A DNA stretch of 64,000 nucleotides from Aquimarina spinulae (GTDB lineage: Bacteria; Bacteroidota; Bacteroidia; Flavobacteriales; Flavobacteriaceae). The stretch spans positions 1,973,501 to 2,037,500 of the forward strand of contig NZ_CALSBP010000002.1 in assembly GCF_943373825.1 (NCBI RefSeq). Direction: 5' to 3'. The translations under genes and the position numbers were made by a program. Numbering within the stretch: position 1 is the first letter of the stretch; every line of letters begins with the position of its first letter. This document shows positions 5,299 to 43,300 of the stretch, piece by piece. A model generated the notes under the pieces. That model was not told the DNA's origin, did no database searches, and saw only the letters and a program-made list of their open reading frames with translations.

Positions 5299-5404
5299 GA
5301 TTTTTTAAATATTAAAAGTGAATATTATTTAAAAATACAAAAGGTGCAGAATTAACCACACCCTTTATAAAATATCAATAATTAATTTTAAAAATATTAA
5401 ATCC

Positions 5405-6106: not shown

Positions 6107-6107
6107 A

Positions 6108-6470
6108 TCATAAAGTTTGTTCAACTATGTTTTTTAAATCATAATCATTATTAGGAATAAAAAAGAATTTAATCCCATTATCCAAGCTAACATAACAAAA
6201 GTAAAAAAAGCATGTAATATTTTTTATTTTAGAAATATCGATTTTTTTCTTTTTAAATAATCCTTTATAAATCAATACAGAATCTTGTACAAAGATGTTT
6301 TTTAATAATTTTCCTAAAGCAAATATAATTAAAGATGCACCAGAAGTAATAAACACTGAAAAATAATCCTGTCTGTATATAAAAAATATTGTCATCAATA
6401 GAAAAATAATACTTTTAAAATATGCAAAGCATTTATAAAAATTTGTAAAATAAAAACTAACTCTTTTCAT
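6108..6470 (-). CDS. Small membrane protein behind RHS gene (possible immunity protein)
   Basis: A 120-residue protein with two hydrophobic segments ('IIFLLMTIFFIY' and 'FSVFITSGASLIIFAL', about 20-55) followed by a soluble tail with alternating strands (about 60-115) resembling small PH-like membrane proteins. It starts 6 bp after the stop of the giant RHS gene, the classic place for an immunity gene of a polymorphic toxin. Homology was not recognised, so immunity is inference from position, size and AT-richness. Confidence 0.6.
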   Translation of the reverse strand: MKRVSFYFTNFYKCFAYFKSIIFLLMTIFFIYRQDYFSVFITSGASLIIFALGKLLKNIFVQDSVLIYKGLFKKKKIDISKIKNITCFFYFCYVSLDNGIKFFFIPNNDYDLKNIVEQTL

Positions 6471-6476
6471 GATAAT

Positions 6477-11273: not shown

Positions 11274-11281
11274 TGTTTTTC

Positions 11282-26364: not shown

Positions 26365-27858
26365 ATGAAAACAATAAAATTAGTAACCGCATTTCTTTTG
26401 TTTGTAAATGTTTTACAGGCTCAGACAAAAAATGTTTTTTTAGAAAGAGAATTCTGGAAAACTAACCCTTCAATAGAAGTTATAGATCAGAAAATAACAG
26501 AAGGTAATGATGCAACGGCATTAAATAAAAATGGATTCGATGCTGTAGTATATGCTATTTTGGGAAACGCAGATAATGCAATAATAAAACACTTACTATC
26601 TAAAAAAGGGAATGATGTTAATAAGTTAACCCATGATAAAAGAACCTATGTGTTTTGGGCAGCTTATAAAGGAAATCTTGAATTGGTAAAACATCTCATT
26701 AATAATAATGCCAGATTAGATTTAAAAGATTCACACAATTTTTCACCATTAACTTTTGCTGCTGTCGCAGGACAAACTAATACAGAAATCTACGATGTAT
26801 TTATAAAAAACGGGATTGATGTTAAAAGTGATTTAGATGAAAAAGGAGCCAATGCTTTATTACTATTAATTGGTCATTTAAAAGATTTTGAACTTGTAGA
26901 TTATTTTGCAAGCAAAGGGCTTAACCTTGATAGCGTAGACAACCATGGAAACGGAGCTTTTAACTATACAGCTTATAAGGGCAACAAAACCATGTTGGAG
27001 TTATTAATAAAAAAGGGATTGCCATATAAAAATCCAAGTGCCAACGGGGATAACGCTATTTTGGCAGCTACTATAGGCTCACGTAGCGGTTATAATCCAT
27101 TGAGTTTTATCAAGTACTTAGAAGGTTTAGGCATTAACCCGAACATTACTAATAAAGATGGAATAACACCACTGCATAACATCGCTTATGGTAATAAAGA
27201 CTTAAACACATTCAACTACTTTTTAGATAAAGGGGTAAATAGTAATCAAAAGGATGATAAAGGTAATACTCCTTTGTTAAATGCATCTCATAACAATACC
27301 TTAGAGGTAATAAAATTATTGGTAAAAAAGACAAATGATATAAATACCACTAATAAAGATGAGCATTCTGCATTAACCAATGCAATAAAAAACAACACAA
27401 TAGATGTGGTTGATTTTTTAATTAGTCAAAAAGCCGATGTAAATGTAATCGATTCTAAAGGAAATAATTTGGTGTACTACACACTAAAATCGTATAATCC
27501 CAACAAGGTTGATCAATTCAAAAAGAAAATAGCCGCTTTGACTAAAAAAGGATTTGATATTGCCAAGCCTCAAAAAAACGGAAATACATTATATCATTTA
27601 GCCATAGAGAAAAACGACCTGGAATTATTAAAAATGATTCCTGATTATAATATCGATATCAATGCTAAGAATAAAGAGGGAATTACAGTCTTACATAAAG
27701 CAGCAATGAGTGCTAAGAATAATAAAATCTTAGCCTATTTATTATCGATTGGAGCCGATAAGACTATTAAAACTGATTTTGAAGAATCTGCATTTGATTT
27801 GGCAAGTGAAAATGAAGTATTAAAGGGAAACAACGTAGATTTAAATTTTTTAAAATAA
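26365..27858 (+). CDS. Exported ankyrin-repeat protein
   Basis: The start at 26365 (MKTIKLVTAFLLFVNVLQAQ) gives a signal peptide and 497 residues; a longer frame upstream overlaps the receptor gene. From about residue 60 to the end there are roughly a dozen ankyrin repeats ('NGFDAVVYAILGNADNAIIKHLLSKKG', 'DGITPLHNIAYGNKDLNTFNYFLDKG'-type). Ankyrin arrays are protein-binding scaffolds; in this operon it may link the receptor to periplasmic partners. It starts 10 bp after the receptor stop. Confidence 0.8.
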   Translation: MKTIKLVTAFLLFVNVLQAQTKNVFLEREFWKTNPSIEVIDQKITEGNDATALNKNGFDAVVYAILGNADNAIIKHLLSKKGNDVNKLTHDKRTYVFWAAYKGNLELVKHLINNNARLDLKDSHNFSPLTFAAVAGQTNTEIYDVFIKNGIDVKSDLDEKGANALLLLIGHLKDFELVDYFASKGLNLDSVDNHGNGAFNYTAYKGNKTMLELLIKKGLPYKNPSANGDNAILAATIGSRSGYNPLSFIKYLEGLGINPNITNKDGITPLHNIAYGNKDLNTFNYFLDKGVNSNQKDDKGNTPLLNASHNNTLEVIKLLVKKTNDINTTNKDEHSALTNAIKNNTIDVVDFLISQKADVNVIDSKGNNLVYYTLKSYNPNKVDQFKKKIAALTKKGFDIAKPQKNGNTLYHLAIEKNDLELLKMIPDYNIDINAKNKEGITVLHKAAMSAKNNKILAYLLSIGADKTIKTDFEESAFDLASENEVLKGNNVDLNFLK

Positions 27859-27859
27859 A

Positions 27860-28354
27860 ATGAAAAAAATAGTAACATTTAGACTGTTTCCGATAATAGC
27901 ATTTGCCATTTTTACAGTATTTGGGTTTAAAAGTACTACAGATAGTAGTCCTTATAAATGCATGATACAAATGACAAATTACACGGGAGAAGGTGCATAT
28001 ATAGTTATTTCTTTATTAGACCCGAACGGAAACTACGAAAAAACACTATTTGTACAAGGTGATGATGAAGAATGGTATCATGATATTACAGATTGGTGGA
28101 AATTCTATGGAAAAAAACGTCAAGACATTGATGCGATCACAGGAGCAACTGTAAGTGGCGGTGGACGATCTATCAATATTATTGAAATTGAAAACGATAA
28201 GATAGACTCTGGCTATAAAATACGTTTTGAAACCGCTGTAGAAGATCAAGAGTATTATAAAGATGATGTAGAGTTTGAGTTAACATCGGAAACTGTAAAA
28301 AGTAAAATTGAAGGAAAAGGATTTATACGATATATTCGTATGATGCCACAATAA
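27860..28354 (+). CDS. DUF2271 protein with flavinylation-like motif
   Basis: A 164-residue protein with an N-terminal hydrophobic segment (about 8-22) that exports or anchors it. The core ('EEWYHDITDWWKFYGKKRQ', then 'DAITGATVSGG' at about 92-102) matches the DUF2271 family, whose DxxTGATxS-type motif resembles the site where ApbE attaches FMN to a Thr or Ser. Known family context: extracytosolic electron transfer with PepSY membrane proteins. It begins 1 bp after the ankyrin gene and precedes the PepSY reductase. Actual flavinylation is inference. Confidence 0.75.
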   Translation: MKKIVTFRLFPIIAFAIFTVFGFKSTTDSSPYKCMIQMTNYTGEGAYIVISLLDPNGNYEKTLFVQGDDEEWYHDITDWWKFYGKKRQDIDAITGATVSGGGRSINIIEIENDKIDSGYKIRFETAVEDQEYYKDDVEFELTSETVKSKIEGKGFIRYIRMMPQ

Positions 28355-28366
28355 CAATACGATTAA

Positions 28367-30568
28367 ATGACGATTTCAATTTGGAGATATAGCCACCTTG
28401 CTTTGGCTATATCTTCATTTGCTTTTATACTTATAGCCTCTTTAACAGGGATTATTTTAGCATTCGAACCTATATCGAATCAGCTAGAGCCTTATGCTGC
28501 AAACAACACAAAAAATCTCACTCTTGCACAAACCATAACAGTATTACAAAAACATTATGGTGAAATAATTGAAATTGAAATCGATAATAATGATTTTGTG
28601 TCAGCCTCAGTAATTACCAAAGAAGGAGACAACAAAACCCTTTATGTCGATCCTTTAACGGGTAAAAAGGTAGGCGATATTATCGAAAAAGCTCCTGTTT
28701 TTAAGTTTGCGACCAACCTACATCGTTCTTTATTTCTAAAAAGTACTGGTCGTTTTTTTGTGGGACTAGTTTCTTTTATATTATTTTTAATTGCAACAAC
28801 CGGAGTTCTTTTAATTATTAAAAGACAACAAGGTATACGTCGTTTTTTTTCTAAAGTTATAAAAGAGAATTTTGAACAATATTACCACATACAAATAGGT
28901 AGATTAACATTAATTCCTATCATTATAATAGCCCTAACTGGTGTATACTTGTCACTAGAAAAATTTTCACTGCTACCATCCAATATCGTTAAACATCAAA
29001 TAGATTTTGAGAATATAAAAGAAACCCCCAAACAGCAAATCAAAGATTTTGAAGTTTTTAATCAAATACGGTTAAAACATGTTAGAAAAGTAGAATTCCC
29101 CTTTTCTGATGATCCCGAAGATTATTTTCATATAAAACTATCTGATAGAGAATTGAATATTAATCAAGTTACAGGCGAAATATTAAGCGAAGTAGCGTAT
29201 CCTTTTAATACATTACTATCACATTGGAGCTTGGTGTTGCATACAGGTCAAGGAAGCATATTATGGTCTGTCATACTACTTATTTCCAGCTGTTCTATTT
29301 TGTTCTTTATGTATTCAGGTTTTTTAATGACTATAAAACGAAGAAAGAAAAGCCTAGTACTAAAAAATGTGTATCATAAAGACAAATCCGAATACATCAT
29401 TCTGGTTGGTTCAGAAACCGGAAATACATTTAATTATGCAAGACTCTTCTATGATGCTTTAATTGATTTGGAAAAAACAGTCTTTATTTCAGAATTAAAC
29501 AAGTATTCCTCCTATAAAAAAGCAGAGCATTTAATCGTATTTACAGCAACTTATGGTAAAGGAGAACCTCCTACCAATGCGAAAAGTTTTGAGCAATCTT
29601 TTAAAAAAATCGAACCCAAAAAAGAAATGAAATTTTCGGTTGTTGGTTTTGGTTCATTAGCGTATCCAGATTTTTGTAAATATGCGATAGACATTGACAA
29701 AATGTTACAATCTCACCCAAAATTTAAATCGACTACAGAACCATACCCTATAAACAATCAATCTTATGAATCTTTTAAAGATTGGTCTTTAAAATGGGGA
29801 GAAAAGATTGATTTACCAATACAGGTAAAACAGTTACAAAAGGCCACAAAATCTAAAAATAATAAACGGTTCTCTGTTGTTCATAGATCCCCACTAAATA
29901 TTGACAATACATTTATACTGCGTTTACGTCCAGAAGAGAAAATACGGTTTACATCAGGAGATCTGCTAGCTTTTTATCCAGAAAACGATGCTGTCGAACG
30001 CCTATACTCTATTGGTAAAATTGATGACGATATTCTTTTGAGTATTAAAAAACATGAATTTGGTATATGTTCGACTTATTTTAGTGAGCTTAACAAAAAC
30101 GATAGCATAACGGCATCAATAAAGCGAAATCCTGATTTTAATTTCCCAACCTATGCAAAAGAGGTTATTATGATTGCAAACGGAACAGGAATAGCTCCTT
30201 TTTTAGGAATGATTAGTAAAAACAATAAGAAAGTAAGAACACATCTATTTTGGGGAGGAAGAAATAAACAATCTAATGAATTGTATAACGAAATAATTCA
30301 GGACAGTTTAAAAAACAATAATTTAACTACATTTTATCCTGCCTATTCAAGAGCTCAACCAGAAAAAATATATGTACAACATGTACTAAAAAGAAATAGT
30401 AATCTAATCACAAAAACATTAGATAAAAACGGAGTTATCCTAATTTGTGGGTCTGTTATTATGCAAAAAGAGGTTATTAATCTCTTAGACAAAATATGTA
30501 AAGAAGTTAATAATAAACCAATACGTTATTATCAAAATAAAGGGCAACTTAAAATGGATTGTTACTAA
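28367..30568 (+). CDS. PepSY-flavodoxin-NADPH reductase fusion (ferric/flavin reductase)
   Basis: 733 residues. The N-terminal 330 residues form a PepSY membrane region with four hydrophobic segments and conserved histidines ('HLHRSLFLKSTGRF'-like, 'HWSLVLHTGQG'). A flavodoxin domain follows (about 345-490, 'ILVGSETGNTFNYARLFYDAL', 'FTATYGKGEPPTNA'), then a sulfite-reductase-type FAD/NAD(P) module (about 505-733, 'ERLYSIGK', 'MIANGTGIAPFLGMI'). It likely moves electrons from cytosolic NADPH through FMN/FAD to membrane haem and then to periplasmic acceptors such as ferric complexes. Last gene of the operon, convergent with the glycosyltransferase gene. Confidence 0.85.
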   Translation: MTISIWRYSHLALAISSFAFILIASLTGIILAFEPISNQLEPYAANNTKNLTLAQTITVLQKHYGEIIEIEIDNNDFVSASVITKEGDNKTLYVDPLTGKKVGDIIEKAPVFKFATNLHRSLFLKSTGRFFVGLVSFILFLIATTGVLLIIKRQQGIRRFFSKVIKENFEQYYHIQIGRLTLIPIIIIALTGVYLSLEKFSLLPSNIVKHQIDFENIKETPKQQIKDFEVFNQIRLKHVRKVEFPFSDDPEDYFHIKLSDRELNINQVTGEILSEVAYPFNTLLSHWSLVLHTGQGSILWSVILLISSCSILFFMYSGFLMTIKRRKKSLVLKNVYHKDKSEYIILVGSETGNTFNYARLFYDALIDLEKTVFISELNKYSSYKKAEHLIVFTATYGKGEPPTNAKSFEQSFKKIEPKKEMKFSVVGFGSLAYPDFCKYAIDIDKMLQSHPKFKSTTEPYPINNQSYESFKDWSLKWGEKIDLPIQVKQLQKATKSKNNKRFSVVHRSPLNIDNTFILRLRPEEKIRFTSGDLLAFYPENDAVERLYSIGKIDDDILLSIKKHEFGICSTYFSELNKNDSITASIKRNPDFNFPTYAKEVIMIANGTGIAPFLGMISKNNKKVRTHLFWGGRNKQSNELYNEIIQDSLKNNNLTTFYPAYSRAQPEKIYVQHVLKRNSNLITKTLDKNGVILICGSVIMQKEVINLLDKICKEVNNKPIRYYQNKGQLKMDCY

Positions 30569-30597
30569 TTCTTAATCCAGTCACTAACAATTATATT

Positions 30598-32286
30598 TTA
30601 ATGATTTTGAATTTTTAAATAGCCATATTTTAATAGCCACATGATGTGTTTTCCTACTTTTTCTGAAGATATCGTATCACTCTTTATTTGTTTCTTCAAC
30701 ATACCAAACTCCTGACTTGTATAACCTCCAAAGGTACTTAGCACACTATATAAAATAGGGGTCGAAAGATGATTAAACGAATCGTAATAAGAAATAAGAG
30801 ATTCTTCCTTACTAACTATTCTTTTCCCTTGTTCAGAAAGGATTATTTGTGTGGTATCACTTATTCTTTTTGAAGCATAATGATTGAAATTTTTATAAAA
30901 GGCCGGAATCTCATATGTTTTAATAAAATCTATAGTTGCATTCTGTTTACTGGCTCTTTCTAATTGTTTTTCCCAAAGTTGTTCGTGTAAGTAAATACTA
31001 TTTTTCCAGTCATAAATTTTTAAAGCTCGTTCTCTAGAGTTTTTACTCATTTTTAAGCATAGAGATGGAAAATCCAAAAGCATTTGCAATGCTTGTTGAT
31101 AAGCTTCCAAATCAATAGCTACAGTCTGGGCAAACTCAAAATGATCGATCAGATTGTAATTATCGTACATCCCTGATTTTAGTGTTATTTCCTCATCCAG
31201 ATCACACATATACGTAGGAATCAAGAAACCAGTTTCACCATGTTTTACGGTATCTTTATACCCATTCCAATCAGATACCACCTGTGGTACTCCACAAGCC
31301 ATAGCTTCTATAGGAGTAATGCCAAAAGTTTCCTGGATATTATCTGCAGGAGAAACAAATACATCTGCACAAGAATGATATAAGTGACGTTTGGATACAG
31401 GCAAGGGCCTAATTAAAATGATATGGTCATTTAATTGAAGGTCATGAATACATTCATCAATGATTTTGTTAAAAATATCTTCTCCGGCTCCCCCGAGTGC
31501 TAGCCTTATTTTCTTTTCAGGATTGTTCTTTATAAGATTTTGAACAACCAATAATAATGGTAGTAAATCTGCTTTATCAAGCGGTGAAATTCTTCCAATC
31601 CATAATATAATAAATGCGTCTAATGGAAGTCCAAGTTCACATCTCACCTCTTTTTTATCTCTTGGTTTAAAAATAGTAGTATCGATTCCTATAGGAATTA
31701 CCTCTGTATTACCTTTAAAACTTAAATCGATGTTATGTGAATCTTTTAGCCTTTCACTAACATGATCAAAAATAGTGTTCAATGCTTTTTGGGCTGCTGT
31801 GCTGGTACATATCATCGTATCATAATCATATGTTTTTTTCAACAGAATTTCTAAATACCAATCATGTAAAAGATATTGATAACTTAATACATGAAAAGTA
31901 GCACTTATCGGATAGGCTTTTGCGCTATATCGATTTCGCAAAGAAATTGCTTTAGAGAAGTCTGCATCAGTTTCATGCCAGATATCAAAATCAAACGTAC
32001 TATTTTTCTCCTTTATATCATTAATATCCTTAATTGTAATAGATATATCTTTTCGCTGATTACCAATATCTAATAATTTCCTACGATCATTAAAGGTGTT
32101 TTTAAAAAAATCGAAAGTTTGATAAAATTGATAATTCCTTGGTTTACCATGTACAAGTAATCCCTTTAGAAAATCATTCACAGCGATATCTCTTCCGAAT
32201 ATAGTTTCTCCTTCTTTAACAGGAGGGTAACTATTAAGATATATCCCTAGATCATTTTTTTTAACAGCAGACTTCTTTGTCATCAT
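30598..32286 (-). CDS. GT4-family glycosyltransferase with C-terminal extension
   Basis: 562 residues. GT-B fold features: 'IILWIGRISPLDKADLLPLLLVV' (about 220-245) and the donor-site signature 'FVSPADNIQETFGITPIEAMACGVPQVVSDW' (about 310-342) with the paired Glu residues. The last roughly 110 residues are beyond the usual GT4 end and finish with a winged-helix-like segment ('KVGKHIMWLLKYGYLKI'). It overlaps the asparagine-synthetase-like gene by 4 bp (ATGA), so the two are translationally coupled. With the 46-residue peptide gene upstream, peptide glycosylation is a reasonable hypothesis; polysaccharide work is the alternative. Confidence 0.8.
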   Translation of the reverse strand: MMTKKSAVKKNDLGIYLNSYPPVKEGETIFGRDIAVNDFLKGLLVHGKPRNYQFYQTFDFFKNTFNDRRKLLDIGNQRKDISITIKDINDIKEKNSTFDFDIWHETDADFSKAISLRNRYSAKAYPISATFHVLSYQYLLHDWYLEILLKKTYDYDTMICTSTAAQKALNTIFDHVSERLKDSHNIDLSFKGNTEVIPIGIDTTIFKPRDKKEVRCELGLPLDAFIILWIGRISPLDKADLLPLLLVVQNLIKNNPEKKIRLALGGAGEDIFNKIIDECIHDLQLNDHIILIRPLPVSKRHLYHSCADVFVSPADNIQETFGITPIEAMACGVPQVVSDWNGYKDTVKHGETGFLIPTYMCDLDEEITLKSGMYDNYNLIDHFEFAQTVAIDLEAYQQALQMLLDFPSLCLKMSKNSRERALKIYDWKNSIYLHEQLWEKQLERASKQNATIDFIKTYEIPAFYKNFNHYASKRISDTTQIILSEQGKRIVSKEESLISYYDSFNHLSTPILYSVLSTFGGYTSQEFGMLKKQIKSDTISSEKVGKHIMWLLKYGYLKIQNH

Positions 32287-33926
32287 ATTATTACTAAATT
32301 TTCATTTTGTTTAGCAACCAAAGAACGCATGGTATATTCTAATGCTATTACTGTGTAAAAATCAATATTTGAATATTTGCTCGCTCCTTTATCATTAATA
32401 TGTTCTTGATAAGCATTTATGAATTTTTTCGGTTCTATATACCCTAAATCTGCCAAATACGAATTTTTAAAAAGCTTATTTACCTGATATTTTGATTGTT
32501 GCAATGCATGAAACATGACAGGGCCAAAATCTTCTGGTTTTTTGGGGTGGGTAATCTTTTTAGAGCAACCAGATTGTGCGAGAAATTCTCGTTGTAATCT
32601 TCGATTTTTTCGCCAGGAAAAAGGAAGGCTTCTACAAAAATTAATAAGTTCGGGAGTACAATAGGGGCTTACTGGCCAAATATTATTAGAAAGATATACA
32701 GGAGAACCATATGCCACAGCTTCTACAGATGAATCAGGCATTAATGATTTAGGTGCTCTTTTTATCGAATTTACTGTATCAGAGTATGTTTCATATAAAT
32801 CATCTTTTATAAACAAAGGCACTTCATTTCTTTGTAAATGCGCACTAGACATATATGATTTTTTGTCTTCGTTATCCATTTCATTCCAATAGGGAAAAAA
32901 TAATTCATCACCGCCAAAGCCTGTAAATAACAGATCATTTTTATTTTGTTTGGCCAAGGATAACAAATGATTAAATGCGGCATGATAACACCCTTCCCAA
33001 GGAACCATTTCTGCATTAGTTATCCTATAACTATTTCTAGAAAAAGGTAAAAAATCTTCAATATGTATGCTTGTATCGTCATATCCAAACCTGGCAATAA
33101 ATTCATTTCTTCGCGATATTTGAGCACCTTTATATTCGTCCATTACCAGCAAACCATAAGTTTGTAACTTAGTAGATGTTAAAGACGAAGCTATAATAGA
33201 GATAATCCCAGAATCAAGACCACTACTCAATTCTGTCGATATGGTTTTTACATCATTATGTATCCACCGTTTCATAGAATGATTAAGAATTTCTTTAAAC
33301 ATCCCAACAACATCGGCATCGGGTTTAAGCTCTCTAGCAAAAGGTTGTTCGAGAGATAGTGGATATGTAATTTCTAAAGTATCATTCCCACTCCAATGTG
33401 CTACAGATCGCTCTGTTAGTCTATGCATTTTCGGGAATATTGTTTTTTTTGAATATGGTCTGTAGTATGTAATAAGATAATGAGAGGCTAATTCTTTATC
33501 TAATGTTAGCGAAGAAAGATGTTTGTAATGTTCTTTGGGATTCCAATGCCCTAATAATTTATTATTACTTTCTACCAAATAGATTGGGGCAACTCCCCAT
33601 TTTCCTGTATGAATAGTAATGGTATTGCTATCTATTAAAAGAGAAATATAATGCAGTGACCACTGTCTAAGGTTTTTTGTTACTTCATGAAACTCGTTAT
33701 CACAAACAATACGTAATGTACTCTTTTTAGTTTCTTTAGTTATTATCTGGGCATTACGTTCTCTAACAACAAATAGATATTGTGTTCCATTAGTAATAGC
33801 AAAAGATTCTAACGATTGATGTGTAAATGGTTCTATACTACTCTCATCAAAACACCATCCTTTTGGTGTTGCAGCACAAGGATAAATAATATCTTTTATA
33901 TCAATCGAAAAACTAATCATAAGCAA
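32283..33926 (-). CDS. Asparagine-synthetase-like enzyme without glutaminase cysteine
   Basis: 547 residues. The C-terminal domain has the ATP pyrophosphatase loop SSGLDS (234-239) and 'GFGGDEL' (336-342), as in asparagine synthetase, beta-lactam synthetase and lasso-peptide cyclases. The N-terminal part keeps a degenerate glutaminase-like fold but starts MLMISFS, lacking the catalytic Cys2, so glutamine is not the nitrogen donor. Expected chemistry: adenylation of a carboxylate and amide formation. It follows a peptide gene and is coupled to a glycosyltransferase. Start at 33926; Met3 is an alternative. Confidence 0.8.
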   Translation of the reverse strand: MLMISFSIDIKDIIYPCAATPKGWCFDESSIEPFTHQSLESFAITNGTQYLFVVRERNAQIITKETKKSTLRIVCDNEFHEVTKNLRQWSLHYISLLIDSNTITIHTGKWGVAPIYLVESNNKLLGHWNPKEHYKHLSSLTLDKELASHYLITYYRPYSKKTIFPKMHRLTERSVAHWSGNDTLEITYPLSLEQPFARELKPDADVVGMFKEILNHSMKRWIHNDVKTISTELSSGLDSGIISIIASSLTSTKLQTYGLLVMDEYKGAQISRRNEFIARFGYDDTSIHIEDFLPFSRNSYRITNAEMVPWEGCYHAAFNHLLSLAKQNKNDLLFTGFGGDELFFPYWNEMDNEDKKSYMSSAHLQRNEVPLFIKDDLYETYSDTVNSIKRAPKSLMPDSSVEAVAYGSPVYLSNNIWPVSPYCTPELINFCRSLPFSWRKNRRLQREFLAQSGCSKKITHPKKPEDFGPVMFHALQQSKYQVNKLFKNSYLADLGYIEPKKFINAYQEHINDKGASKYSNIDFYTVIALEYTMRSLVAKQNENLVII

Positions 33927-34056
33927 AAAGATGAGACTGTCTTAAAAATCTCTTTTTATACTATTTTGAGTCTAATGATTCAATACATTCCTGCTATAAT
34001 CTATTTGACAAATAGGATTGTTTACATTTTTAAAGCAGCCTCATCTTATATTTATG
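33927..34056 (-). other. Spacer between peptide and synthetase genes with inverted repeat
   Basis: AAGATGAGACTG-like sequence next to the synthetase start (about 33929-33940) is reversed near 34032-34047 (CAGCCTCATCTT). On the transcript these could pair to form a long-range stem that modulates read-through from the abundant peptide message into the enzyme genes. Weak but typical of precursor-enzyme spacing. Confidence 0.3.
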
Positions 34057-34197
34057 TTATCCATTCTTTTTACCTTGAGCATCTCTGTCTCCATCTCTTT
34101 TTCCTCTCAATTCTATCATTGAAGAGTTTCTTTCTGGAGAGAAAGTTTTGTTCTTAAAAAGATCTTCTCCCGTAGGAATATTACTGTTAATTTTCAT
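34057..34197 (-). CDS. 46-residue candidate RiPP precursor peptide
   Basis: ATG at 34197 to TAA at 34057 encodes 46 residues: a leader-like half (MKINSNIPTGEDLFKNKTF), then SPERNSSMIEL, and a polar C-terminus rich in Gly, Asp, Arg and Lys ('RGKRDGDRDAQGKKNG'). It lies 130 bp upstream of the asparagine-synthetase-like gene on the same strand and has a well-spaced promoter. A Gly followed seven residues later by Asp would allow a lasso-type ring, but no B1/B2 leader-binding or protease genes are nearby. Precursor status is inference from size, composition and context. Confidence 0.55.
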   Translation of the reverse strand: MKINSNIPTGEDLFKNKTFSPERNSSMIELRGKRDGDRDAQGKKNG

Positions 34198-34231
34198 AAT
34201 ATAAAGTTTTAATAATTAATGATTTATATCA

Positions 34232-34261
34232 TAAATGTAACTTATCCATGATAGATAACAA
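34232..34261 (-). promoter_or_regulatory. Bacteroidota promoter for the peptide gene
   Basis: On the minus strand, TTG (complement of 34259-34261) is followed by exactly 19 bases and then TACATTTA (complement of 34232-34239). This matches TTG-N19-TAnnTTTG except for the last base. Transcription would start about 30 bp upstream of the ATG at 34197, which supports the 46-residue gene as real. Confidence 0.55.
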
Positions 34262-34424
34262 ATACGTATTTATACCTGAAATTTTAAACCTTTGAGTACT
34301 ATTTATAAAATAATTGAGAAAAAGTATTTTATATAAAATGATGATATTCTAAAAAACAATTCTATAGGATTTGTGAGTTTACTTTTGCAAGTATTTTGCT
34401 TATAATAGTATAATCAAATCAAAC

Positions 34425-34458
34425 AAAAAAAACCTGACAAGTTAAACTCATCAGGTTT
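34425..34458 (-). terminator. Terminator of the DUF6438 gene
   Basis: An 8-bp stem AAACCTGA / TCAGGTTT (34430-34437 and 34451-34458) is followed, on the minus strand, by a run of T (plus-strand A tract at 34425-34432). It lies about 115 bp after the stop of the leftward gene at 34573 and separates it from the peptide operon. Confidence 0.65.
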
Positions 34459-34572
34459 ATAAATAGACACTAAATTAAGGGCAACCTTTACAAATCAAAT
34501 CATTACTACTTATTATTAACCCCTTAATTTCCTCTATTTTTAAAGATATCTAGTTCAAGGCCTACCCAAAAA

Positions 34573-35028
34573 CTATCCTTCTTTATTTCCACCACTTTCG
34601 TAACCCATTGTGATGTTATCTATTGCATTTTTTAATGTAGTATCAATTTCTTTTAGGGCACCATCAATTCTAGAAGAATAATATTTATATTCTTTACCAT
34701 TAAAACGTAATGTAGTAATTGGCTTATCTCTCACTTTTTTAAAAGCCAAACCTTCGTATGAGTCTTTATTCAACATCGTTTTTAACGCTCTAAATTCCTG
34801 TTCTTCTAGCTTAGCTTTTATATTTCCTTTTACAGAAACGTGATGTATTCCCGAGTAAGAAACCGAGCCATCTTCATATATCCATACATCATACACCGGG
34901 CATTTTCCCATACAAGATCCTTTTGAATAATATACTAGTGCTTCATCTTCTGAAGTATTTGCAGTAGCATTTTTGGTGGATTGACAAGAAAAGCTTACCA
35001 TTATTAGTATTATCATTACATATTTCAT
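34573..35028 (-). CDS. DUF6438 lipoprotein
   Basis: 151 residues with lipoprotein signal ('MVSFSC', Cys15). The core 'VYYSKGSCMGKCPVYDVWIYEDGSVSYSGI' followed by 'KPITTLRFNG' matches the DUF6438 family of Bacteroidota cell-surface or periplasmic proteins. Two conserved cysteines in 'CMGKC'. Function unknown. It is 63 bp downstream of the metallopeptidase lipoprotein gene and probably in one transcript with it. Confidence 0.7.
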   Translation of the reverse strand: MKYVMIILIMVSFSCQSTKNATANTSEDEALVYYSKGSCMGKCPVYDVWIYEDGSVSYSGIHHVSVKGNIKAKLEEQEFRALKTMLNKDSYEGLAFKKVRDKPITTLRFNGKEYKYYSSRIDGALKEIDTTLKNAIDNITMGYESGGNKEG

Positions 35029-35091
35029 GCGCTATCTTTTTTAAGTAGTAGTGGTTTGAATGATTAAATCACTACTACAGTTTTTATCATT

Positions 35092-36084
35092 TTAATGCTT
35101 GTGAATACCACAGTGTGTTTTATTTTTATTACCAAAAGTATTTGCATTTTTCCATGATCCGGGAAGAGGTAGGAAACTTCTGCTACTTTTTGAGATATTG
35201 CCTCTTATATAATTTCTAAGCTTTATCATCTCTGCATTATCATACATCATTTGTATCTTTTTTTCTGCTCTACTGCTTCCATTTGCTCCTCCTGCTCTGG
35301 TCACAAACGTAGCAAAGACCTCTGCGATATCTTCTCCGGGATTAGTAGAAGCATATTGCGTTACATAACGCTCTTTATATTTATCATAAAATTTTTGTGC
35401 ATCACTTTCATTATTCACCTTTCGAAATTCTTCCCAGATATCAGCCCAATGATTTTGATATAGCTTATTAATATTAGAATTATCTCTGGAGCACCCTTCT
35501 CCTGTAAAGAAATTTTTGCAATCGCCTTGAGATACAGAAGAATCAACCTGCACTTTATCCAAAGTGATGATATGTCCAAATTCGTGCACTATAGTATATG
35601 CCAGTTCTCCTCCTGCATTAAATCCTCCTTGATATGCAAAATCTATCGCAATACCCATCTGCCACTTCGAGAGGTCTTGTGTTCTTTCTACTACATATCC
35701 AGCGGTTCCATCATTTTCGCCAGCAAAAATTACAAACTCACTCATTCTTGATCTATAATCGGGCGGAACAATCTTTTTTACTAAGTCCCATATTTCCTCA
35801 TGCTTTTTAGTATCCTTTTGAAACTCTAATAATTTCCCGGTTACTTTATAATCTTTTTCTTTTATGATTTTATCGCCATCAATTTTATAAAGAGTTATAC
35901 TTCCACCATCACCATTAGTCTCACTATCAGTTCCTGTATCACCACCAGTAGTACCTGGGGTATCTGTATTCGGATTCGGTTGTGGACCGGCTGCATCATC
36001 ATCTTTACTACAGGATTGAATAGAAATTGTCGCTATACTCAGAAAAATGATCAGTATATAATTCCATCTTTTCACGTTGTTCAT
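35092..36084 (-). CDS. Zinc metallopeptidase lipoprotein
   Basis: 330 residues. Lipobox 'ISIQSC' with Cys25, then a low-complexity Asp/Thr/Gly linker (about 28-62), then a zincin domain with HEFGH at 167-171 and a downstream 'NPGEDIAEVFATFV' that likely supplies the third ligand region. It resembles the putative zinc-binding metallopeptidase lipoproteins of Bacteroidota. Probably surface-exposed; substrate unknown. Confidence 0.8.
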   Translation of the reverse strand: MNNVKRWNYILIIFLSIATISIQSCSKDDDAAGPQPNPNTDTPGTTGGDTGTDSETNGDGGSITLYKIDGDKIIKEKDYKVTGKLLEFQKDTKKHEEIWDLVKKIVPPDYRSRMSEFVIFAGENDGTAGYVVERTQDLSKWQMGIAIDFAYQGGFNAGGELAYTIVHEFGHIITLDKVQVDSSVSQGDCKNFFTGEGCSRDNSNINKLYQNHWADIWEEFRKVNNESDAQKFYDKYKERYVTQYASTNPGEDIAEVFATFVTRAGGANGSSRAEKKIQMMYDNAEMIKLRNYIRGNISKSSRSFLPLPGSWKNANTFGNKNKTHCGIHKH

Positions 36085-36320
36085 GTTTTATTTTGGGTTA
36101 AAAATTAAACGTCCTTTCTTACACAACAGTGAACTTCTAAAACACCCTATTTTTTTATTTACTTTTTTTTAAAATCTTCTATATTTTTTTTAGAAATAGG
36201 GTAAAAGCAAAATATACTGTTGTTATAGTATATGGAGATATCATTACAATAAAAGCTTAAGTAGAAGGCAATCAAAGAAAGAAAAAACAACATCTTTCTA
36301 TACTTTTTCTTTAAATACCG

Positions 36321-36328
36321 TAGTTTTG
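36321..36328 (+). promoter_or_regulatory. -7 promoter box for the sigma factor gene
   Basis: TAGTTTTG fits TAnnTTTG and lies 24 bp before the ATG at 36352. No clear TTG is found 19 bp upstream, so the -33 element is weak. Confidence 0.45.
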
Positions 36329-36351
36329 AAAAAAAGCTAAGTATTTCTAAG

Positions 36352-36870
36352 ATGTCAGAAAAACAAAAGTCTGTTTGTGATGAAAAAAACTTTAGGATGA
36401 TTTTTGATAATCATTCTGAAGTGATCCTGAATTTCATTTATTATAAATGTGGAGATATGAAACAGGCAGAAGATATAACACAGGATGCTTTTGTAAAACT
36501 TTGGAAAAATTGCAAGAAAGTACTTTTTGATAAAGCAAAGTCTTTTTTAATGAAAGTAGCTCAAAATGCTTTTTTTAATGAATTAAATCACGAAAAAGTA
36601 ATCTTAAAGTATAATCAGCAAAGCTTCTCTTCTATTCAATATGATTATAGCCCAGAGTTTTTAATGGAGGAAAAAGAGTTTATGGTAAAATTACAACGTA
36701 GTATTTCTGAACTCCCGCCAAAGCAAAGAGAAGTTTTTCTATTAAGCAGAAAAGACAAGAAAACCTATAAAGAAATTGCCGAGATTATTGGGTTAACCCA
36801 AAAAGCGGTAGAGCGAAGAATGCACTTGGCATTATTAGAATTAAGAGAAAAATTAGGGCGCACGGTTTAA
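36352..36870 (+). CDS. FecI-like ECF sigma factor
   Basis: 172 residues. Region 2 ('FRMIFDNHSEVILNFIYYKCGDMKQAEDITQDAFVKLWKN') and region 4 ('LPPKQREVFLLSRKDKKTYKEIAEIIGLTQKAVERRM') are clear. It directs RNA polymerase to a small regulon, usually the receptor gene of the same locus. The FecR-like gene follows 15 bp later and the TonB receptor after that, the standard FecI-FecR-FecA surface-signalling order. Confidence 0.9.
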   Translation: MSEKQKSVCDEKNFRMIFDNHSEVILNFIYYKCGDMKQAEDITQDAFVKLWKNCKKVLFDKAKSFLMKVAQNAFFNELNHEKVILKYNQQSFSSIQYDYSPEFLMEEKEFMVKLQRSISELPPKQREVFLLSRKDKKTYKEIAEIIGLTQKAVERRMHLALLELREKLGRTV

Positions 36871-36885
36871 CAAGAGAACAAAAAA

Positions 36886-37794
36886 ATGGAAAAGTCAGAT
36901 AACATAGATGTTTTTTTAGCCAAATGGGCCAGCGGTGAATTATCCGAAGAAGAAATCAATGCTTTCAAAAAATCTAAAGATTATACTTTATACGAAACTA
37001 TTCTCGAAGGAACAAAGTTACTTGAAGTCCCCACAGTAGACAGAGAAAAACTTTTTGATCGTATTCAAGAAGATGTCTCTAAAGAGAAAAAAGTAATCTC
37101 TTTGATTCCTGGATGGGCATATGCAATCGCTGCAAGTATTGCACTAATCCTTGGGTATACTCTATTTTTTAATCAAAACATTACACATCAATCCGGATTT
37201 GGTGAACGACTAGCAATAACACTTCCTGATGGTTCTGAAGCAATTTTGAATGCTAAATCAAAACTATACTATAAAAAAGGAAGCTGGGAAAATACCGAAC
37301 GAATCGTATTTTTAGATGGAGAAGCCTTTTTTAAAGTGAAAAAAGGAAATACATTTACCGTAAAATCTGATCATAATTCTGTTTCAGTATTAGGCACGCA
37401 ATTTAACGTTAATGCTTCTTCTAAATTTTTTGAGGTGATCTGTTATGAAGGTAAAGTAAAAGTAGAAAATGGAATTTCTTCGAAAATTATTACCAAAGGA
37501 CAAGCAGTAAGAAGTATTGATTCATCATTCGAAGAATGGGAATTAAATGACACCGCTCCTTCATGGACTTCAGGAGAAAGTAGCTTTGTCAATACCCCAT
37601 TACAGCAGGTGATATCTGCTCTCGAAAAACAATATAAAATTACTATTAAAAGTGAGCGCATTGGTGTCGATCAGCGATACAGTGGTGGGTTTGCCCATGA
37701 TAATTTACAAAATGCTTTGCATACTATTTTTGATGCAATGGATATTAAGTTTATTTTTATAGACAAGAATACTGTAGAATTGTCTAAAGAATAA
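36886..37794 (+). CDS. FecR-like anti-sigma factor
   Basis: 302 residues. A cytosolic N-terminal part (about 1-80) is followed by one membrane segment ('GWAYAIAASIALILGYTLFF', about 83-102), then the periplasmic FecR domain ('ITLPDGSEAILNAKSKLYYKKG', 'FLDGEAFFKVKKGNTFTVKSDHNSVSVLGTQFNVNA') and the DUF4974-type C-terminus ('LQQVISALEKQYKITI'). It transmits the receptor's signal to the sigma factor. Its stop is directly followed by the receptor ATG. Confidence 0.9.
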   Translation: MEKSDNIDVFLAKWASGELSEEEINAFKKSKDYTLYETILEGTKLLEVPTVDREKLFDRIQEDVSKEKKVISLIPGWAYAIAASIALILGYTLFFNQNITHQSGFGERLAITLPDGSEAILNAKSKLYYKKGSWENTERIVFLDGEAFFKVKKGNTFTVKSDHNSVSVLGTQFNVNASSKFFEVICYEGKVKVENGISSKIITKGQAVRSIDSSFEEWELNDTAPSWTSGESSFVNTPLQQVISALEKQYKITIKSERIGVDQRYSGGFAHDNLQNALHTIFDAMDIKFIFIDKNTVELSKE

Positions 37795-40353
37795 ATGAAA
37801 TACCACTTTTTATTGCTTATTTCTCTTTTTTTTCTAACTGCAAATGCTCAAGAAAAAAAGAAGGACATACATTATATTGACCTCTCATTAGACGGTTTTC
37901 TAACCGAAATGGAAGGGCTTTTTGATGTGAAATTTTCTTATAATACTTCGTCATTCACAGATATAGTGATCACGATAGATCAAAACGCTATATCATTAAA
38001 CGAAATTATAGCTATTGTATCCGATCAATACCCAATACATTTTACACAAGTTGATGAGCGATACTACGTTGTTAAACTTAATAAAACAACTCCTTTTTGT
38101 GGATATCTTACCGATGAAACCCACACTCCTATTGAGGGAGCTACTATACTTAACGAAGTAAAAAAATCAGGGACCTCATCTGATGATAAAGGCTTTTTTT
38201 CTTTAAAAGACAATAGCGTATCAGACACTTTAATTATTTCATACCTTGGATATAAAACCATTGCTATCCCTCTTAAAAAAGTAATCAACAAGAAATGTGA
38301 CACCTATATTCTATCTCCCGAAGATTTTGTGTTAAACGAAGTTATAATAAAGGAATATCTAACCTCTGGAATAGTAAAAACCAGAGATGGTTCGGTTAAA
38401 ATTCAACCTAATAATTTAAATATAATTTCGGGATTATCTGAGCCCGATATTCTGCAAAATATTCAACTGTTGCCTGGGATAGAAAGTCCGCTAGAAACCG
38501 CTTCAGGAATTTATATAAGAGGTGGTACTCCCGATCAAAACCTAATTCTATGGGACGGTATTAAAATGTATAATTCTGATCACTTTTTTGGACTTATTTC
38601 TGCTTTCAACCCATACATCACCAAAGATATTACTATATACAAAAGTGGAACCCAGCCTATTTATGGAGATCGTGTCTCGGGAGTTATTGATATCAAAACA
38701 GATCAAACTGTACCCGATAAAACACACGGAGGTATAGGAATTAATATGACTCATGCCGATGGATATTTAAAACTTCCTATTTCTAAAAAAATCGGGGTTT
38801 TACTATCGGCCAGAAGATCTATTACCGATGTTATTGATACTCCAACAATTAACACCTACTCTAACCGGGCTTTTCAGAACACAAGTATTACTGATAACAG
38901 GTCTATTTTTGATCCCGAATCTTCAGAAAGTAAAGAGCTATTTTATTTTACCGATGTAACCTTAAAATTAATTGCCAATCTTTCTAAAAAACACGATATC
39001 TCTATTTCTAATTTGTTTACTCAAAACAAACTTGATTATTCTTTTAAGGATTCTCAATTTGCAGATATGTCACAGGATAAACTTGCTATTAAAAATTTTG
39101 GAACAAACATTTCCTGGGATAGCAAGTGGGGTTCGCGATTCTCTACAAAAACACAATTTTCATATTCTGAATATCTACTCGAGTACCAGGGAAGGAACCT
39201 CTTTATTAATCAAGATCTAACTATAGAAAAAGAAAATGCCATCGAAGAATATGGACTATTATTTCATTCTGACTGGACTATTAATCCTCATTTCACTTTT
39301 TCTAATGGATATCAATTCTACTATAACCGAACAGCATTTTATCTAAGAGAAAATGATGCTGAAGTCGGAAATTATCAAGAGAATCCTACTCATAGTTTTT
39401 ATTCTCAATTACAATATAGTGCTCCCCAAACTTGGCTGGTTAGCTTTGGCCTAAGAGGAAATTATTACGCCGCATTACAATCTGCTTTTATCGAGCCCAG
39501 ATTCTATGTAGAACGAAAAATAGGAAAGCATTTTAGGGTTAAAGGATCTGCAGAAGTCAAAAATCAATCCATTAGTCAAGTGATTGAGTTTGCCACTTTT
39601 AATTTTGGCCTCGAAAATCAGTTATGGGTTGCAGCACAAGAAGATGATATCCCATTGTTGAGAAGTCAGCAATACACGCTGGGCACTCTTTTTCATAAAA
39701 AAAACTGGAATATCGAAATAGATACCTATTACAAAAAGATAAAAGGACTTACTTCGCTAACCAGAGGGTTTGAGTCTACTTCGGGTGACCTGTCTGAAGG
39801 AGAAAGTATCTCTACGGGAATAGATTTATTAATTAAAAAGAAAGCGGGTAAGTACTCTACCTGGCTTGGGTATTCATTTTCTGATACCGAGTTCACATTT
39901 AATACGCTTAATCAAGGTAAAGCTTTTAAAGGAAATAATAATATCACGCATTCTGTTTCGTGGTCTCATGCTTATCAGTGGAAGAAATTTCAGTTTTCGT
40001 TGGGGTGGAAATATCGTACCGGTACTCCATATACTCCTTCATTAGGGCTTACAATAGTAGATGATCTGCCCATTGTTCAATACGGTGCTATAAACTCTAA
40101 GTCGCTACCCGATTATCATAGACTGGATTTTTCTGTAGTATATGATTTTAACTGGTCATCAAAAAACGATAGAATAAAAAGCCGCCTGGGCTTCTCTTTA
40201 TTAAATCTATATGGAAGGAAAAATATCTTAGATCGAAGTTATCCGCTCTATCAATTAACAGATAGTGAAAATAATATTTCTTATGAATTAAGAGAAGTCA
40301 ATAAATCTTCTTTAAATATCACTCCTAATGTTACGTTTAGACTAAGTTTTTAA
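37795..40353 (+). CDS. TonB-dependent receptor with STN signalling domain
   Basis: 852 residues. Signal peptide (1-18), STN domain (about 25-95, 'FLTEMEGLFDVKFSYN', 'LNEIIAIVSDQYPIHF') that contacts FecR, carboxypeptidase-like domain (about 100-170), plug ('LLPGIESPLETASGIYIRGGTPDQNLILWDGI') and barrel ending in 'NITPNVTFRLSF'. FecA-like by order and domains. Substrate unknown; the neighbouring protease genes could hint at peptide or protein-derived ligands, but this is only context. Confidence 0.9.
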   Translation: MKYHFLLLISLFFLTANAQEKKKDIHYIDLSLDGFLTEMEGLFDVKFSYNTSSFTDIVITIDQNAISLNEIIAIVSDQYPIHFTQVDERYYVVKLNKTTPFCGYLTDETHTPIEGATILNEVKKSGTSSDDKGFFSLKDNSVSDTLIISYLGYKTIAIPLKKVINKKCDTYILSPEDFVLNEVIIKEYLTSGIVKTRDGSVKIQPNNLNIISGLSEPDILQNIQLLPGIESPLETASGIYIRGGTPDQNLILWDGIKMYNSDHFFGLISAFNPYITKDITIYKSGTQPIYGDRVSGVIDIKTDQTVPDKTHGGIGINMTHADGYLKLPISKKIGVLLSARRSITDVIDTPTINTYSNRAFQNTSITDNRSIFDPESSESKELFYFTDVTLKLIANLSKKHDISISNLFTQNKLDYSFKDSQFADMSQDKLAIKNFGTNISWDSKWGSRFSTKTQFSYSEYLLEYQGRNLFINQDLTIEKENAIEEYGLLFHSDWTINPHFTFSNGYQFYYNRTAFYLRENDAEVGNYQENPTHSFYSQLQYSAPQTWLVSFGLRGNYYAALQSAFIEPRFYVERKIGKHFRVKGSAEVKNQSISQVIEFATFNFGLENQLWVAAQEDDIPLLRSQQYTLGTLFHKKNWNIEIDTYYKKIKGLTSLTRGFESTSGDLSEGESISTGIDLLIKKKAGKYSTWLGYSFSDTEFTFNTLNQGKAFKGNNNITHSVSWSHAYQWKKFQFSLGWKYRTGTPYTPSLGLTIVDDLPIVQYGAINSKSLPDYHRLDFSVVYDFNWSSKNDRIKSRLGFSLLNLYGRKNILDRSYPLYQLTDSENNISYELREVNKSSLNITPNVTFRLSF

Positions 40354-40366
40354 ATGAAATGGTTTA

Positions 40367-43300
40367 CTATCGCATCAATGAGAAATTAGCGGTAAACTCT
40401 TTTAATACACCGTTTTCTTTATACACTACTTTGAACCAATAATCTGCTGAAAATAATCGCTTCCCGTTATAGGTGCCATCCCATCCTGCACCTCCAGGTT
40501 GCAATACCTTTATTAATTTCCCAAATCGGTTAAAAATATATAGATTTTCAATTTCTATGGCCCCACAGCCACTGGTATTAAGATTCCAGGTATCATGAAT
40601 CCCATCTCCATTAGGCGTAAAATATTTGGGATATCCCATAATACAGATTTCAATTGTATCACAACCACAGCCATCAATACTACATACTGTTATTTGATGA
40701 GCTCCAGGGGTTAAATCTTCAAAAACATTACTATCCTGAAAAATACCTCGATCCAGGCTATATTCATATGTACCTTCACTTTCTACTTCTACCGTCACGC
40801 TGTTATTTTCTGAAAATGCCTGCACACTTTGTGCACTAATAACCGGAGGTGTTCCTTCCAAAATCGTAATCATAAAACTAGATTCATTATTACACTCTGG
40901 TATACCAGCATAGATATAGATCATTTGCGAACTGTAAATCTCGGTACCGGCATCTAATTGTGTACCTGTTGCGTTACTGCCGGTATAATACGTTCCATTG
41001 AGAATGACCGGCAATTCATATGCTCTACAGATTTCAATATCATCTAAGGTGGTTATTTCTGGGGTATTAGTTATGCTAACATTTTGTGATGCACTGCCTG
41101 TACAAATATCGGTAACTGTTACAGTATAGCTACCTGATTTGGTAGTTGTAAGCGTATTTGAGGTTTCGTTGGGAATAACATTACCATCTAACTCCCAAAC
41201 ATAAGTAGCAGCAGTACTAAACGTTCCTACAGCAGCAAGCGTAGCTTCACCTGAACATGTTTGTTGAGTTACTGTCATATCTACTACTAAGGCATTGGTA
41301 ATCGTAACTGTTTTGGTAACACTACCTGCACAACCGTCAGTAACCGTGAGCGTATAATCACCTGATACAGTAGCTGTAAGCGTATTTGAGGTTTCGTTGG
41401 GAATAACATTACCATCTAACTGCCAAGCATAAGTAGCTGCAGTACTAAATGTTCCTACAGCGGTAAGCGTAGCTTCACCAGAACAGGCTTGTTGAGTTAC
41501 TGTCATATCTACTACTAAGGCACTGGTAATAGTAACCGTTTTGGTAACACTGCCGGTACAACCATCAGTAACCGTGAGCGTATAGTCACCAGATACAGTA
41601 GCTGTAAGCGTATTTGAAGTTTCAGTTAATGGATTACCATCTAACTGCCAAGCATAAGTAGCTGCAGTACTAAATGTTCCTACAGCTGCAAGCATAGCTT
41701 CACCAGAACAAGACTGTTGAGTTACTGTCATATCTACTACTAAGGCATTGGTAATTGTAACTTTTTTGGTAACACTGCCAGAACAACCGTCAGTAACCGT
41801 GAGCGTATAATCTCCTGATACAGTAGCTGTAAGAGTATTTGAAGTTTCGTTGGGAATAACATTACCATCTAACTGCCAAGCATAGGTAGCTGCAGTACTA
41901 AATGTTCCTACAGCAGCAAGCGTAGCTTCACCAGAACAGGACTGTTGAGTTACTGTCATATCTACTACTAAGGCACTGGTAATTGTAACTGTTTTGGTAA
42001 CACTGCCGGTACAACCATCAGTAACCGTGAGCGTATAGTCACCAGATACAGTAGCTGTAAGCGTATTTGAAGTTTCAGTTAATGGATTACCATCTAACTG
42101 CCAAGCATAAGTAGCTGCAGTACTAAATGTTCCTACAGCAGCAAGCGTAGCTTCACCAGAACAGGACTGTTGAGTTACTGTCATATCTACTACTAAGGCA
42201 CTGGTAATTGTAACTGTTTTGGTAACACTACCAGCACATCCATCGGTAACCGTGAGCGTATAGTCACCAGATACAGTAGCTGTAAGCGTATTTGAAGTTT
42301 CAGTTAATGGATTACCATCTAACTGCCAAGCATAAGTAGCTGCAGTACTAAATGTTCCTACAGCAGCAAGCGTAGCTTCACCAGAACAGGACTGTTGAGT
42401 TACTGTCATATCTACTACTAAGGCACTGGTAATTGTAACTGTTTTGGTAACACTACCAGCACATCCATCGGTAACTATTAAGGTATAATCGCCTGATGCA
42501 GTAGCTGTAAGCGTATTTGAGGTTTCGTTAGGAATAACATTACCATCTAACTCCCAGGCATAAGTAGCTGCAGTACTAAATGTTCCTACTGCCGTAAGCG
42601 TAGCTTCACCGGAACAGGACTGTTGAGTTATTGACATATCTACTGCTAAAGCAGTAATCTTAACTGTAAAATTACTACCATTCGAACCCGAACAACCATT
42701 ACCATCAACGATACGCACATAAATTGTATCATCACTGGTTACTGTATAGGAGGTAGGGTTTGTTATAGGGTTTACTCCATTATCAGCATTTGTTTCTGTG
42801 GTATAATAACTTACAGTAAGTCCCGTTTGGCCATTAGTTGCCAGAGCATCATTAACTGTAAGATCAAATTCTGCTTGACCATTTTGATCTGCACAAGCTT
42901 CCAGATCTTTTACAGGACCTACCTGTAGTCCCCCGCTTAAATTCACTTCGATCTCATCTTCTCCCGGGCATTTTGCTCCGGTAACAATAACGGTATAGGT
43001 ACCTGATTGGGTTGCCGTAAGTGTTTTTGTATTTTCATTAGGAATAGGTATTCCATCTAATTGCCATTCAAATTGCATTGAAGAATCAAAAACTCCCTGA
43101 GCAGTAAGTGTTGTTTGTTGTGCGCATGTATTGATATCTGGTCCAAGATCTACTTTAAAATCTCCAAAAATACTGTTTTGTATAAATACTCCTCCATCAA
43201 ATTGATGATCTCCTCTATCCGCAATTACTAATTTTAAAGTATACGTTTCTCCCGGAGTTACTTTGGATGTAGCTGTTAATAGTGTTGTACGACCGTCAAA

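What the first reader, a model, noticed from the sequence alone, without database searches (positions are those of the whole stretch)
30598..34261. Possible new RiPP pathway: 46-residue peptide, asparagine-synthetase-like enzyme, glycosyltransferase
Seen: an unlisted 46-codon gene (34197 to 34057) with a TTG-N19-TACATTTA promoter, then an asparagine-synthetase-like enzyme with an intact ATP loop but no glutaminase cysteine, then a GT4 enzyme overlapping it by 4 bp. Known: ATP-grasp-independent synthetase-like enzymes of this kind close lasso rings or form lactams. Inference: the peptide is modified by amide formation and glycosylation. The missing lasso B1/B2 genes make it either non-lasso or dependent on distant genes.
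Basis: partly seen in the sequence, partly recalled or inferred. Interest (0 to 1): 0.78.

Follow-up and report, generated by a model that had tools for sequence, protein, structure and literature searches.

The report
Peptide-ring cassette without leader protease
A marine bacterium carries a small three-gene cassette that probably makes a modified peptide by linking a lysine to an aspartate six residues further on, and the same peptide-plus-enzyme pairing turns up in soil, plant-associated and actinobacterial relatives, pointing to a peptide natural-product family that seems not to have been described.

Summary
In this Aquimarina-like genome a 46-codon gene (34197-34057, minus) precedes an asparagine-synthetase-like enzyme (32283-33920) and a GT4 glycosyltransferase overlapping it by 4 bp. 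A same-species genome lacks window 30576-34416, the stretch with these three genes.

The peptide-enzyme pairing is old. At 21 of 21 loci examined (Bacteroidota, rhizobia, Xanthomonas, Streptomyces; some near-identical) a small ORF within 300 nt upstream contains K-x5-D, against 15 of 242 control ORFs. K..D at spacing 6 occurs in 10 of 10 precursor families; other spacings 1-12 in at most 3. The enzyme lacks the glutaminase Cys. Lasso B2 protease: 0 of 18 genomes or plasmids over the cut-off (the plasmid hosts' chromosomes were not searched).

Best reading: a RiPP pathway in which the enzyme activates the Asp and the Lys side chain attacks, closing a 7-residue lactam without prior leader cleavage. 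No chemistry is shown. Glycosylation of the peptide is only inferred; the predicted Aquimarina core has no Ser/Thr. Ten searches of an open-access library found no description of this family.

The parts
30576..34416 (.). Presence/absence cassette holding the three genes; absent from a same-species genome (G064), whose two flanks align 17 bp apart
34232..34261 (-). Bacteroidota-type promoter-like box TTG-N19-TACATTTA (consensus recalled)
   Evidence: motif at chance level by count; kept in L006
34057..34197 (-). 46-aa precursor peptide MKINSNIPTGEDLFKNKTFSPERNSSMIELRGKRDGDRDAQGKKNG
34060..34101 (-). Predicted core: Lys33 to C-terminus, K-RDGDR-D (Lys33/Asp39) plus 7-residue tail AQGKKNG
   Evidence: K-x5-D conservation
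33921..34056 (-). Intergenic stretch with a predicted RNA hairpin between precursor and enzyme (possible attenuator or stabiliser; perfect in L006, long-looped here)
32283..33920 (-). Asparagine-synthetase-like enzyme, 545 aa, no N-terminal Cys, intact ATP loop; proposed Lys-Asp lactam synthetase
33210..33230 (-). Codons 231-237 LSSGLDS, pyrophosphate loop
30598..32286 (-). GT4 glycosyltransferase, 562 aa, E319 and E327 invariant in the alignment, plus a C-terminal part of about 115 residues of unknown role; overlaps the enzyme gene by 4 bp

Best explanation
A RiPP biosynthetic unit. The 46-aa peptide is the precursor: an N-terminal leader with a [E/D]-x-[L/V]-F-like motif and a C-terminal core K-x5-D-tail. 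The asparagine-synthetase-like enzyme, whose glutaminase half is dead, adenylates the Asp side chain with ATP; instead of ammonia, the epsilon-amine of the Lys six residues upstream attacks, giving a Lys-Asp isopeptide and a 7-residue ring with a short tail. Because the amine is a side chain, the leader need not be cut first, which would explain the absence of a B2 leader peptidase. Tailoring varies: GT4 here, APH-type kinase with or without GNAT in rhizobia, a methyltransferase or ABC transporter in Streptomyces. Shown: gene pairing, conserved K-x5-D, predicted enzyme fold, missing Cys, no B2 in the genome. Inferred: the reaction, ring, leader function and tailoring.
For: Small upstream ORF with K-x5-D at 21 of 21 loci, against 15 of 242 control ORFs, 189 of which have any small ORF upstream. 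K..D at offset 6 in 10 of 10 precursor families (grouped by eye), other offsets 1-12 at most 3. In 2000 shuffles K..D offset 6 reached at most 7 of 10, and the best of all pairs and offsets at most 9. In the three Q1 precursors the Asp is the only Asp, and in two of them the Lys is the only one besides Lys2. Enzyme fold: AF2 pLDDT 91; nearest solved chains TsnB9, AsnB, beta-lactam synthetase, carbapenam synthetase and human ASNS over nearly the whole length; two of these close lactams (recalled). No Cys at position 2 in the aligned members; the organism's own AsnB begins MCG. No Transglut_core3 over the cut-off in any of 18 genomes or plasmid records. The empty site shows the three genes present or absent as one unit. 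Core codons change mostly synonymously. Predicted hairpin between precursor and enzyme genes: of 14 intergenic stretches taken (from 22 loci counting the window), 2 were too short to fold, and 11 of the other 12 had z of -2.2 or lower against mononucleotide shuffles.
Against: No product known. The Lys of the AsnB motif QKEQF (its catalytic role is recalled) aligns to Pro, Thr, Arg or Lys in this family, so the reaction could differ. Precursors of different families are otherwise hardly alike. In Rhizobium a second Lys (KGGKPGD) and in L013, L027 and L028 a second K-x5-D make the donor ambiguous. In L017 and L026 the annotated small ORF is not the one with the motif, in L019, L022-L025, L027 and L028 no small ORF is annotated there, and in L026 I moved the enzyme start upstream. 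The loci were chosen by me: 18 of up to 54 matching plasmid records and 3 Bacteroidota; most of the 42 enzyme homologs could not be placed in context. The test restricted to 6 annotated or first-read families is weaker: 6 of 6, reached by K..D-6 itself in 2 of 5000 shuffles but by some pair and offset in 320 of 5000. A B2 gene on the chromosomes of the plasmid hosts is not excluded, and B1 was not searched.
Confidence: 0.6

Rival explanations
1. Lasso-like peptide: an unlinked protease cuts before the Lys, and the alpha-amine of Lys1 joins Asp7, a 7-residue ring with threaded tail.
For: Ring of 7 and a tail of 6-8 residues in 11 of 15 precursors resemble small lassos in size (recalled); weak NCBIfam similarity to lasso cyclases (37-38 bits, cut-offs 300 and 525).
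Against: No B2 in the own genome and none over the cut-off in 17 other genomes/records, though host chromosomes of the plasmids were not searched; Thr at the penultimate leader position 0 of 15; residue before Lys is not conserved; an alpha-amine nucleophile would not require Lys.
Confidence: 0.13
2. The enzyme amidates or nitrilates a carboxylate (Asp to Asn, or C-terminal amide/nitrile) with free ammonia, as other AS-like RiPP enzymes do, or forms an aspartimide.
For: AS-like amidation and nitrilation in RiPPs are known, and PesC can use ammonia (PMC13060819, sections 9 and 10 read). The conserved Asp could be the target.
Against: Glutaminase Cys is absent; the C-terminal residue is not conserved; amidation does not explain the invariant Lys at -6.
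Confidence: 0.15
3. The small ORF is a regulatory leader or unrelated peptide and the enzyme has a small-molecule substrate, with the GT acting on that or on cell-surface sugars.
For: GT4 relatives are BshA/MshA-like small-molecule transferases; no immunity or export gene in the cassette; the hairpin after the ORF could be attenuation.
Against: Codons 27-46 change mostly synonymously; K-x5-D kept across phyla; 21 of 21 linkage.
Confidence: 0.06

Closest known systems
Lasso peptide pathways (A, B1, B2, C)
   Same: Short precursor followed by an AS-like enzyme without glutaminase Cys; predicted lactam to an Asp side chain; ring plus short tail
   Different: No B2 in the genome; no penultimate Thr; invariant Lys six residues before the Asp; the window enzyme is far below the lasso cyclase cut-offs
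Graspetides (for example corallotide, Lys9-Asp13 isopeptide, PMC13097080, passages seen)
   Same: Proposed Lys-Asp side-chain lactam made on the precursor
   Different: Graspetides use ATP-grasp ligases with an acyl phosphate; here an AS-like, presumably adenylating, enzyme of unrelated fold
Nitrilobacillin PesC and other AS-like RiPP amidation enzymes TsrC, ScdTA (PMC13060819)
   Same: AS-like enzyme acting on a ribosomal peptide
   Different: They bring ammonia to the C-terminal carboxylate; PesC also needs prior hydroxylation by an MNIO. That paper says about 300 AS-like RiPP candidates remain uncharacterised; this family may be among them
Beta-lactam synthetase and carbapenam synthetase (1jgt, 1q15)
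   Same: Same fold; dead glutaminase half and intramolecular lactam chemistry (recalled)
   Different: Small-molecule substrates; 10-15% identity

Membership tests
RiPP (general) | Gene-encoded short precursor linked to a modifying enzyme | tested here: met
   21 of 21 loci examined; cassette
RiPP (general) | Modified, leader-cleaved product | not testable with these tools
   needs mass spectrometry
Lasso peptides | AS-like cyclase C without glutaminase Cys | tested here: inconclusive
   no Cys, but 37-38 bits against cut-offs 300 and 525 for the window enzyme
Lasso peptides | B2 transglutaminase-like leader peptidase (PF13471) | tested here: not met
   none in the own genome at E<=1; 0 of 18 genomes/records over the cut-off, 3 sub-threshold matches
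Lasso peptides | B1 leader-binding protein (PqqD-like) | not tested
   no search made; only three genes in the cassette
Lasso peptides | Conserved Thr at penultimate leader position (abstract of PMC10368454 as listed) | tested here: not met
   0 of 15 if the core starts at Lys
Lasso peptides | Threaded topology | not testable with these tools
   NMR or digestion assay needed
Graspetides | ATP-grasp ligase in the gene cluster | tested here: not met
   the synthetase is PF00733 and the other enzyme a GT; only these genes in the cassette
Graspetides | Side-chain to side-chain lactam or lactone | not testable with these tools
   predicted from K-x5-D only
Glutamine-dependent asparagine synthetase | N-terminal catalytic Cys | tested here: not met
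GT4 glycosyltransferases | GT-B fold with E-x7-E motif | tested here: met
   E319 and E327 invariant in 21 rows; AF2 pLDDT 87 and BshA/MshA matches over about residues 9-446

The most novel reading that the evidence does not exclude
A distinct RiPP class spread over Bacteroidota, Pseudomonadota and Actinomycetota in which an asparagine-synthetase-fold enzyme makes a Lys-Asp side-chain macrolactam (K-x5-D) on the uncut precursor, convergent with ATP-grasp graspetides and mechanistically between lasso cyclases and amidotransferases, with exchangeable tailoring (glycosyl, phospho, acetyl, methyl).
Probability: 0.5. Interest if true: 0.87.

Novelty: new variant of a known kind. Interest (0 to 1): 0.76.

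Why it matters
If true, it adds a leader-protease-free use of the asparagine synthetase fold to close peptide rings, gives a simple search rule (AS-like enzyme plus small ORF with K-x5-D and a short tail) for finding more, and offers a two-gene system for making lactam peptides. It would also put a peptide of unknown role next to quorum-sensing genes on some symbiotic plasmids of rhizobia.

Tried and rejected
Lasso membership: tested by NCBIfam, B2 search and penultimate Thr; not met. B1 (PqqD) was not searched, nor were the chromosomes of the plasmid hosts. Graspetide membership: other enzyme family. More loci: the genome search over family, phylum, order and class draws (397, 395, 395 and 395 genomes, overlapping) gave only the own genome and, in the family draw, G371; the genus gave 3 of 66. 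A viral scan gave one weak match that I did not follow. The genome-contig scan gave one relative. The precursor search gave three peptides, two of them already known. Most of the 42 enzyme homologs are known only as proteins; I read loci for the window, P0002 (L006), P0004 (L012) and P0005 (L013) only, so the precursors of the others are untested. Of up to 54 plasmid records I fetched 18. tblastn of the GT against plasmids at E 1e-40 found nothing. Promoter motif alone: chance level. GT C-terminal part (about 447-562): not covered by the structural matches shown; I did not model it alone, so whether it binds the peptide is open. Mobile-element ends at the cassette: no obvious repeats seen by eye at the empty-site junction. 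Literature: searches listed nothing that describes this family; most listed papers were seen only as titles and abstract beginnings, and the library is open-access only. Of the papers opened I saw outline with abstract, passages and sections 9 and 10 of PMC13060819; passages of PMC12710340, PMC9266682, PMC13352647 and PMC13097080; outline with abstract of PMC12670498. PMC10368454 was seen only in search listings.
Full report
What is there. The window lies in an Aquimarina-like genome (the enzyme is 98% identical to an A. megaterium protein). On the minus strand, a 46-codon ORF (34197-34057) is followed after 136 nt by an asparagine-synthetase-like gene (ATG 33920, stop 32283) and a GT4 gene (32286-30598) that overlaps it by 4 bp. 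The window region 27003-41000 aligns to a same-species genome, G064, in two pieces that end at 30575 and restart at 34417 and lie 17 bp apart there, so the missing stretch 30576-34416 holds these three genes and no other ORF that I take for a gene. In two congeners the cassette is kept while the neighbours on one side, a different side in each, are elsewhere or missing. Three of 66 genus genomes carry the enzyme; the GT was found in 2 of the 58 genus genomes drawn, both with the enzyme, and also beside it in L006.

The peptide is a real gene. Relatives L006 and L012 keep the frame, with three and four amino-acid changes; between window and L012 there are 9 synonymous and 6 non-synonymous changes over about 27 and 111 sites, and codons 27-46 hold five of the synonymous but one of the non-synonymous changes. 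In another genus (L013, G371) the peptide has diverged to 61 aa but keeps PTGxDLFK and K-x-x-G-x-RDAxGKK; a further copy, P0165, keeps KGSGTRDA.

The pairing is wider than the genus. tblastn of the enzyme against 72,556 plasmid records found 49 records, all below 60% identity, in Rhizobium, Bradyrhizobium, Mesorhizobium, Aminobacter, Streptomyces and Xanthomonas; two further family members as queries matched 50 and 54 records. I fetched 18 of these. Counting mechanically, all 21 loci examined (18 plasmid, 3 Bacteroidota, the window itself not counted) have a 25-100 aa ORF within 300 nt upstream that holds K-x5-D; of 242 other ORFs of 200 aa or more in the same loci, on both strands, 189 have some such small ORF and 15 one with K-x5-D. 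Several loci are near-identical, so I grouped precursors by eye into 10 families: all 10 have K..D at spacing 6, and no other spacing from 1 to 12 exceeds 3. In 2000 shuffles the K..D-6 count reached at most 7, and the best of all residue pairs and spacings at most 9. Caveats: in L017 and L026 the ORF with the motif is not the annotated one; in L019, L022-L025, L027 and L028 no small ORF is annotated there (the gene tables are incomplete); for L026 I took an in-frame start upstream of the annotated enzyme start. The restricted test on 6 annotated or first-read families is weaker: 6 of 6, reached by K..D-6 in 2 of 5000 shuffles but by some pair and spacing in 320 of 5000.

How it most likely works. 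The Asp is activated with ATP (inferred from the family), and the invariant Lys is the amine. If an alpha-amine were used, as in lassos, a protease would be needed and Lys would not be required; no such protease gene was found here, and the lasso leader Thr is absent (0 of 15). The ring would have 7 residues, with a tail of 6-8 residues in 11 of 15 precursors. The N-terminal part, with a D/E-x-L/V-F-like motif in Bacteroidota, Streptomyces and Rhizobium precursors, is probably the recognition leader (inference; seen by eye). Between precursor and enzyme I folded 12 of the 14 intergenic stretches taken (two were too short): each has a predicted hairpin, 11 with z of -2.2 or lower and L016 with -1.2; in GC-rich genomes that is weak evidence. 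It fits a precursor made in excess of the enzyme.

Tailoring. The Aquimarina GT has a normal GT4 body and an extra C-terminal part of unknown role. Its acceptor is open: the Aquimarina core has no Ser or Thr. An acyl-homoserine-lactone synthase gene lies near the enzyme in 5 of the 18 plasmid loci, which suggests population-density control there. The function of the product is unknown; nothing here says whether it is an antibiotic, a signal or a metal ligand.

Known or not. The nearest published systems are lasso peptides, graspetides and AS-like amidation/nitrile enzymes. PMC13060819 states that about 300 AS-like RiPP candidates are uncharacterised (section 9). Ten literature searches of an open-access library listed no account of a K-x5-D precursor with a lone AS-like enzyme; subscription papers are not covered, and most listed papers were seen only as listings.

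Noticed in passing
L018 (X. sacchari plasmid) 46-2115, 5360-7126, 9812-11785: The AS-like gene has two S9 peptidases nearby (best NCBIfam match Dpp5, 471 and 61 bits, cut-off 900; also Atxe2 lasso isopeptidase, 81 and 53 bits, cut-off 400) and an oligopeptide:H+ symporter; possible peptide uptake and opening.
   Followed up: partly
L029 (R. johnstonii 3841 pRL10) 5941-7041: The enzyme gene is annotated shorter than relatives (366 aa against about 530) although the precursor ORF is present; six other Rhizobium plasmids match only about 30% of the query: apparent decay.
   Followed up: no
G000:C1 about 1373391-1375160 (L004): A second divergent Asn_synthase-like protein (589 aa) without Cys at position 2 near a contig end in the same genome.
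   Followed up: no
L020 1082-3974 and L031 1-1193: Radical SAM genes lie a few kb upstream of the Mesorhizobium/Aminobacter peptide locus.
   Followed up: no
window 36352-40353: Sigma factor, FecR-like and TonB-dependent receptor genes in a row, separate from the cassette (names by eye).
   Followed up: no
window 40367-46564: 2065-aa protein with repeated domains and what looks like a gliding-type secretion C-terminus (by eye).
   Followed up: no
window 30601-30948 (GT residues about 447-562): Conserved C-terminal part ending HIMWLLKYG in the GT alignment, shared with GT4 homologs from other phyla; possibly peptide-binding, not modelled alone.
   Followed up: partly
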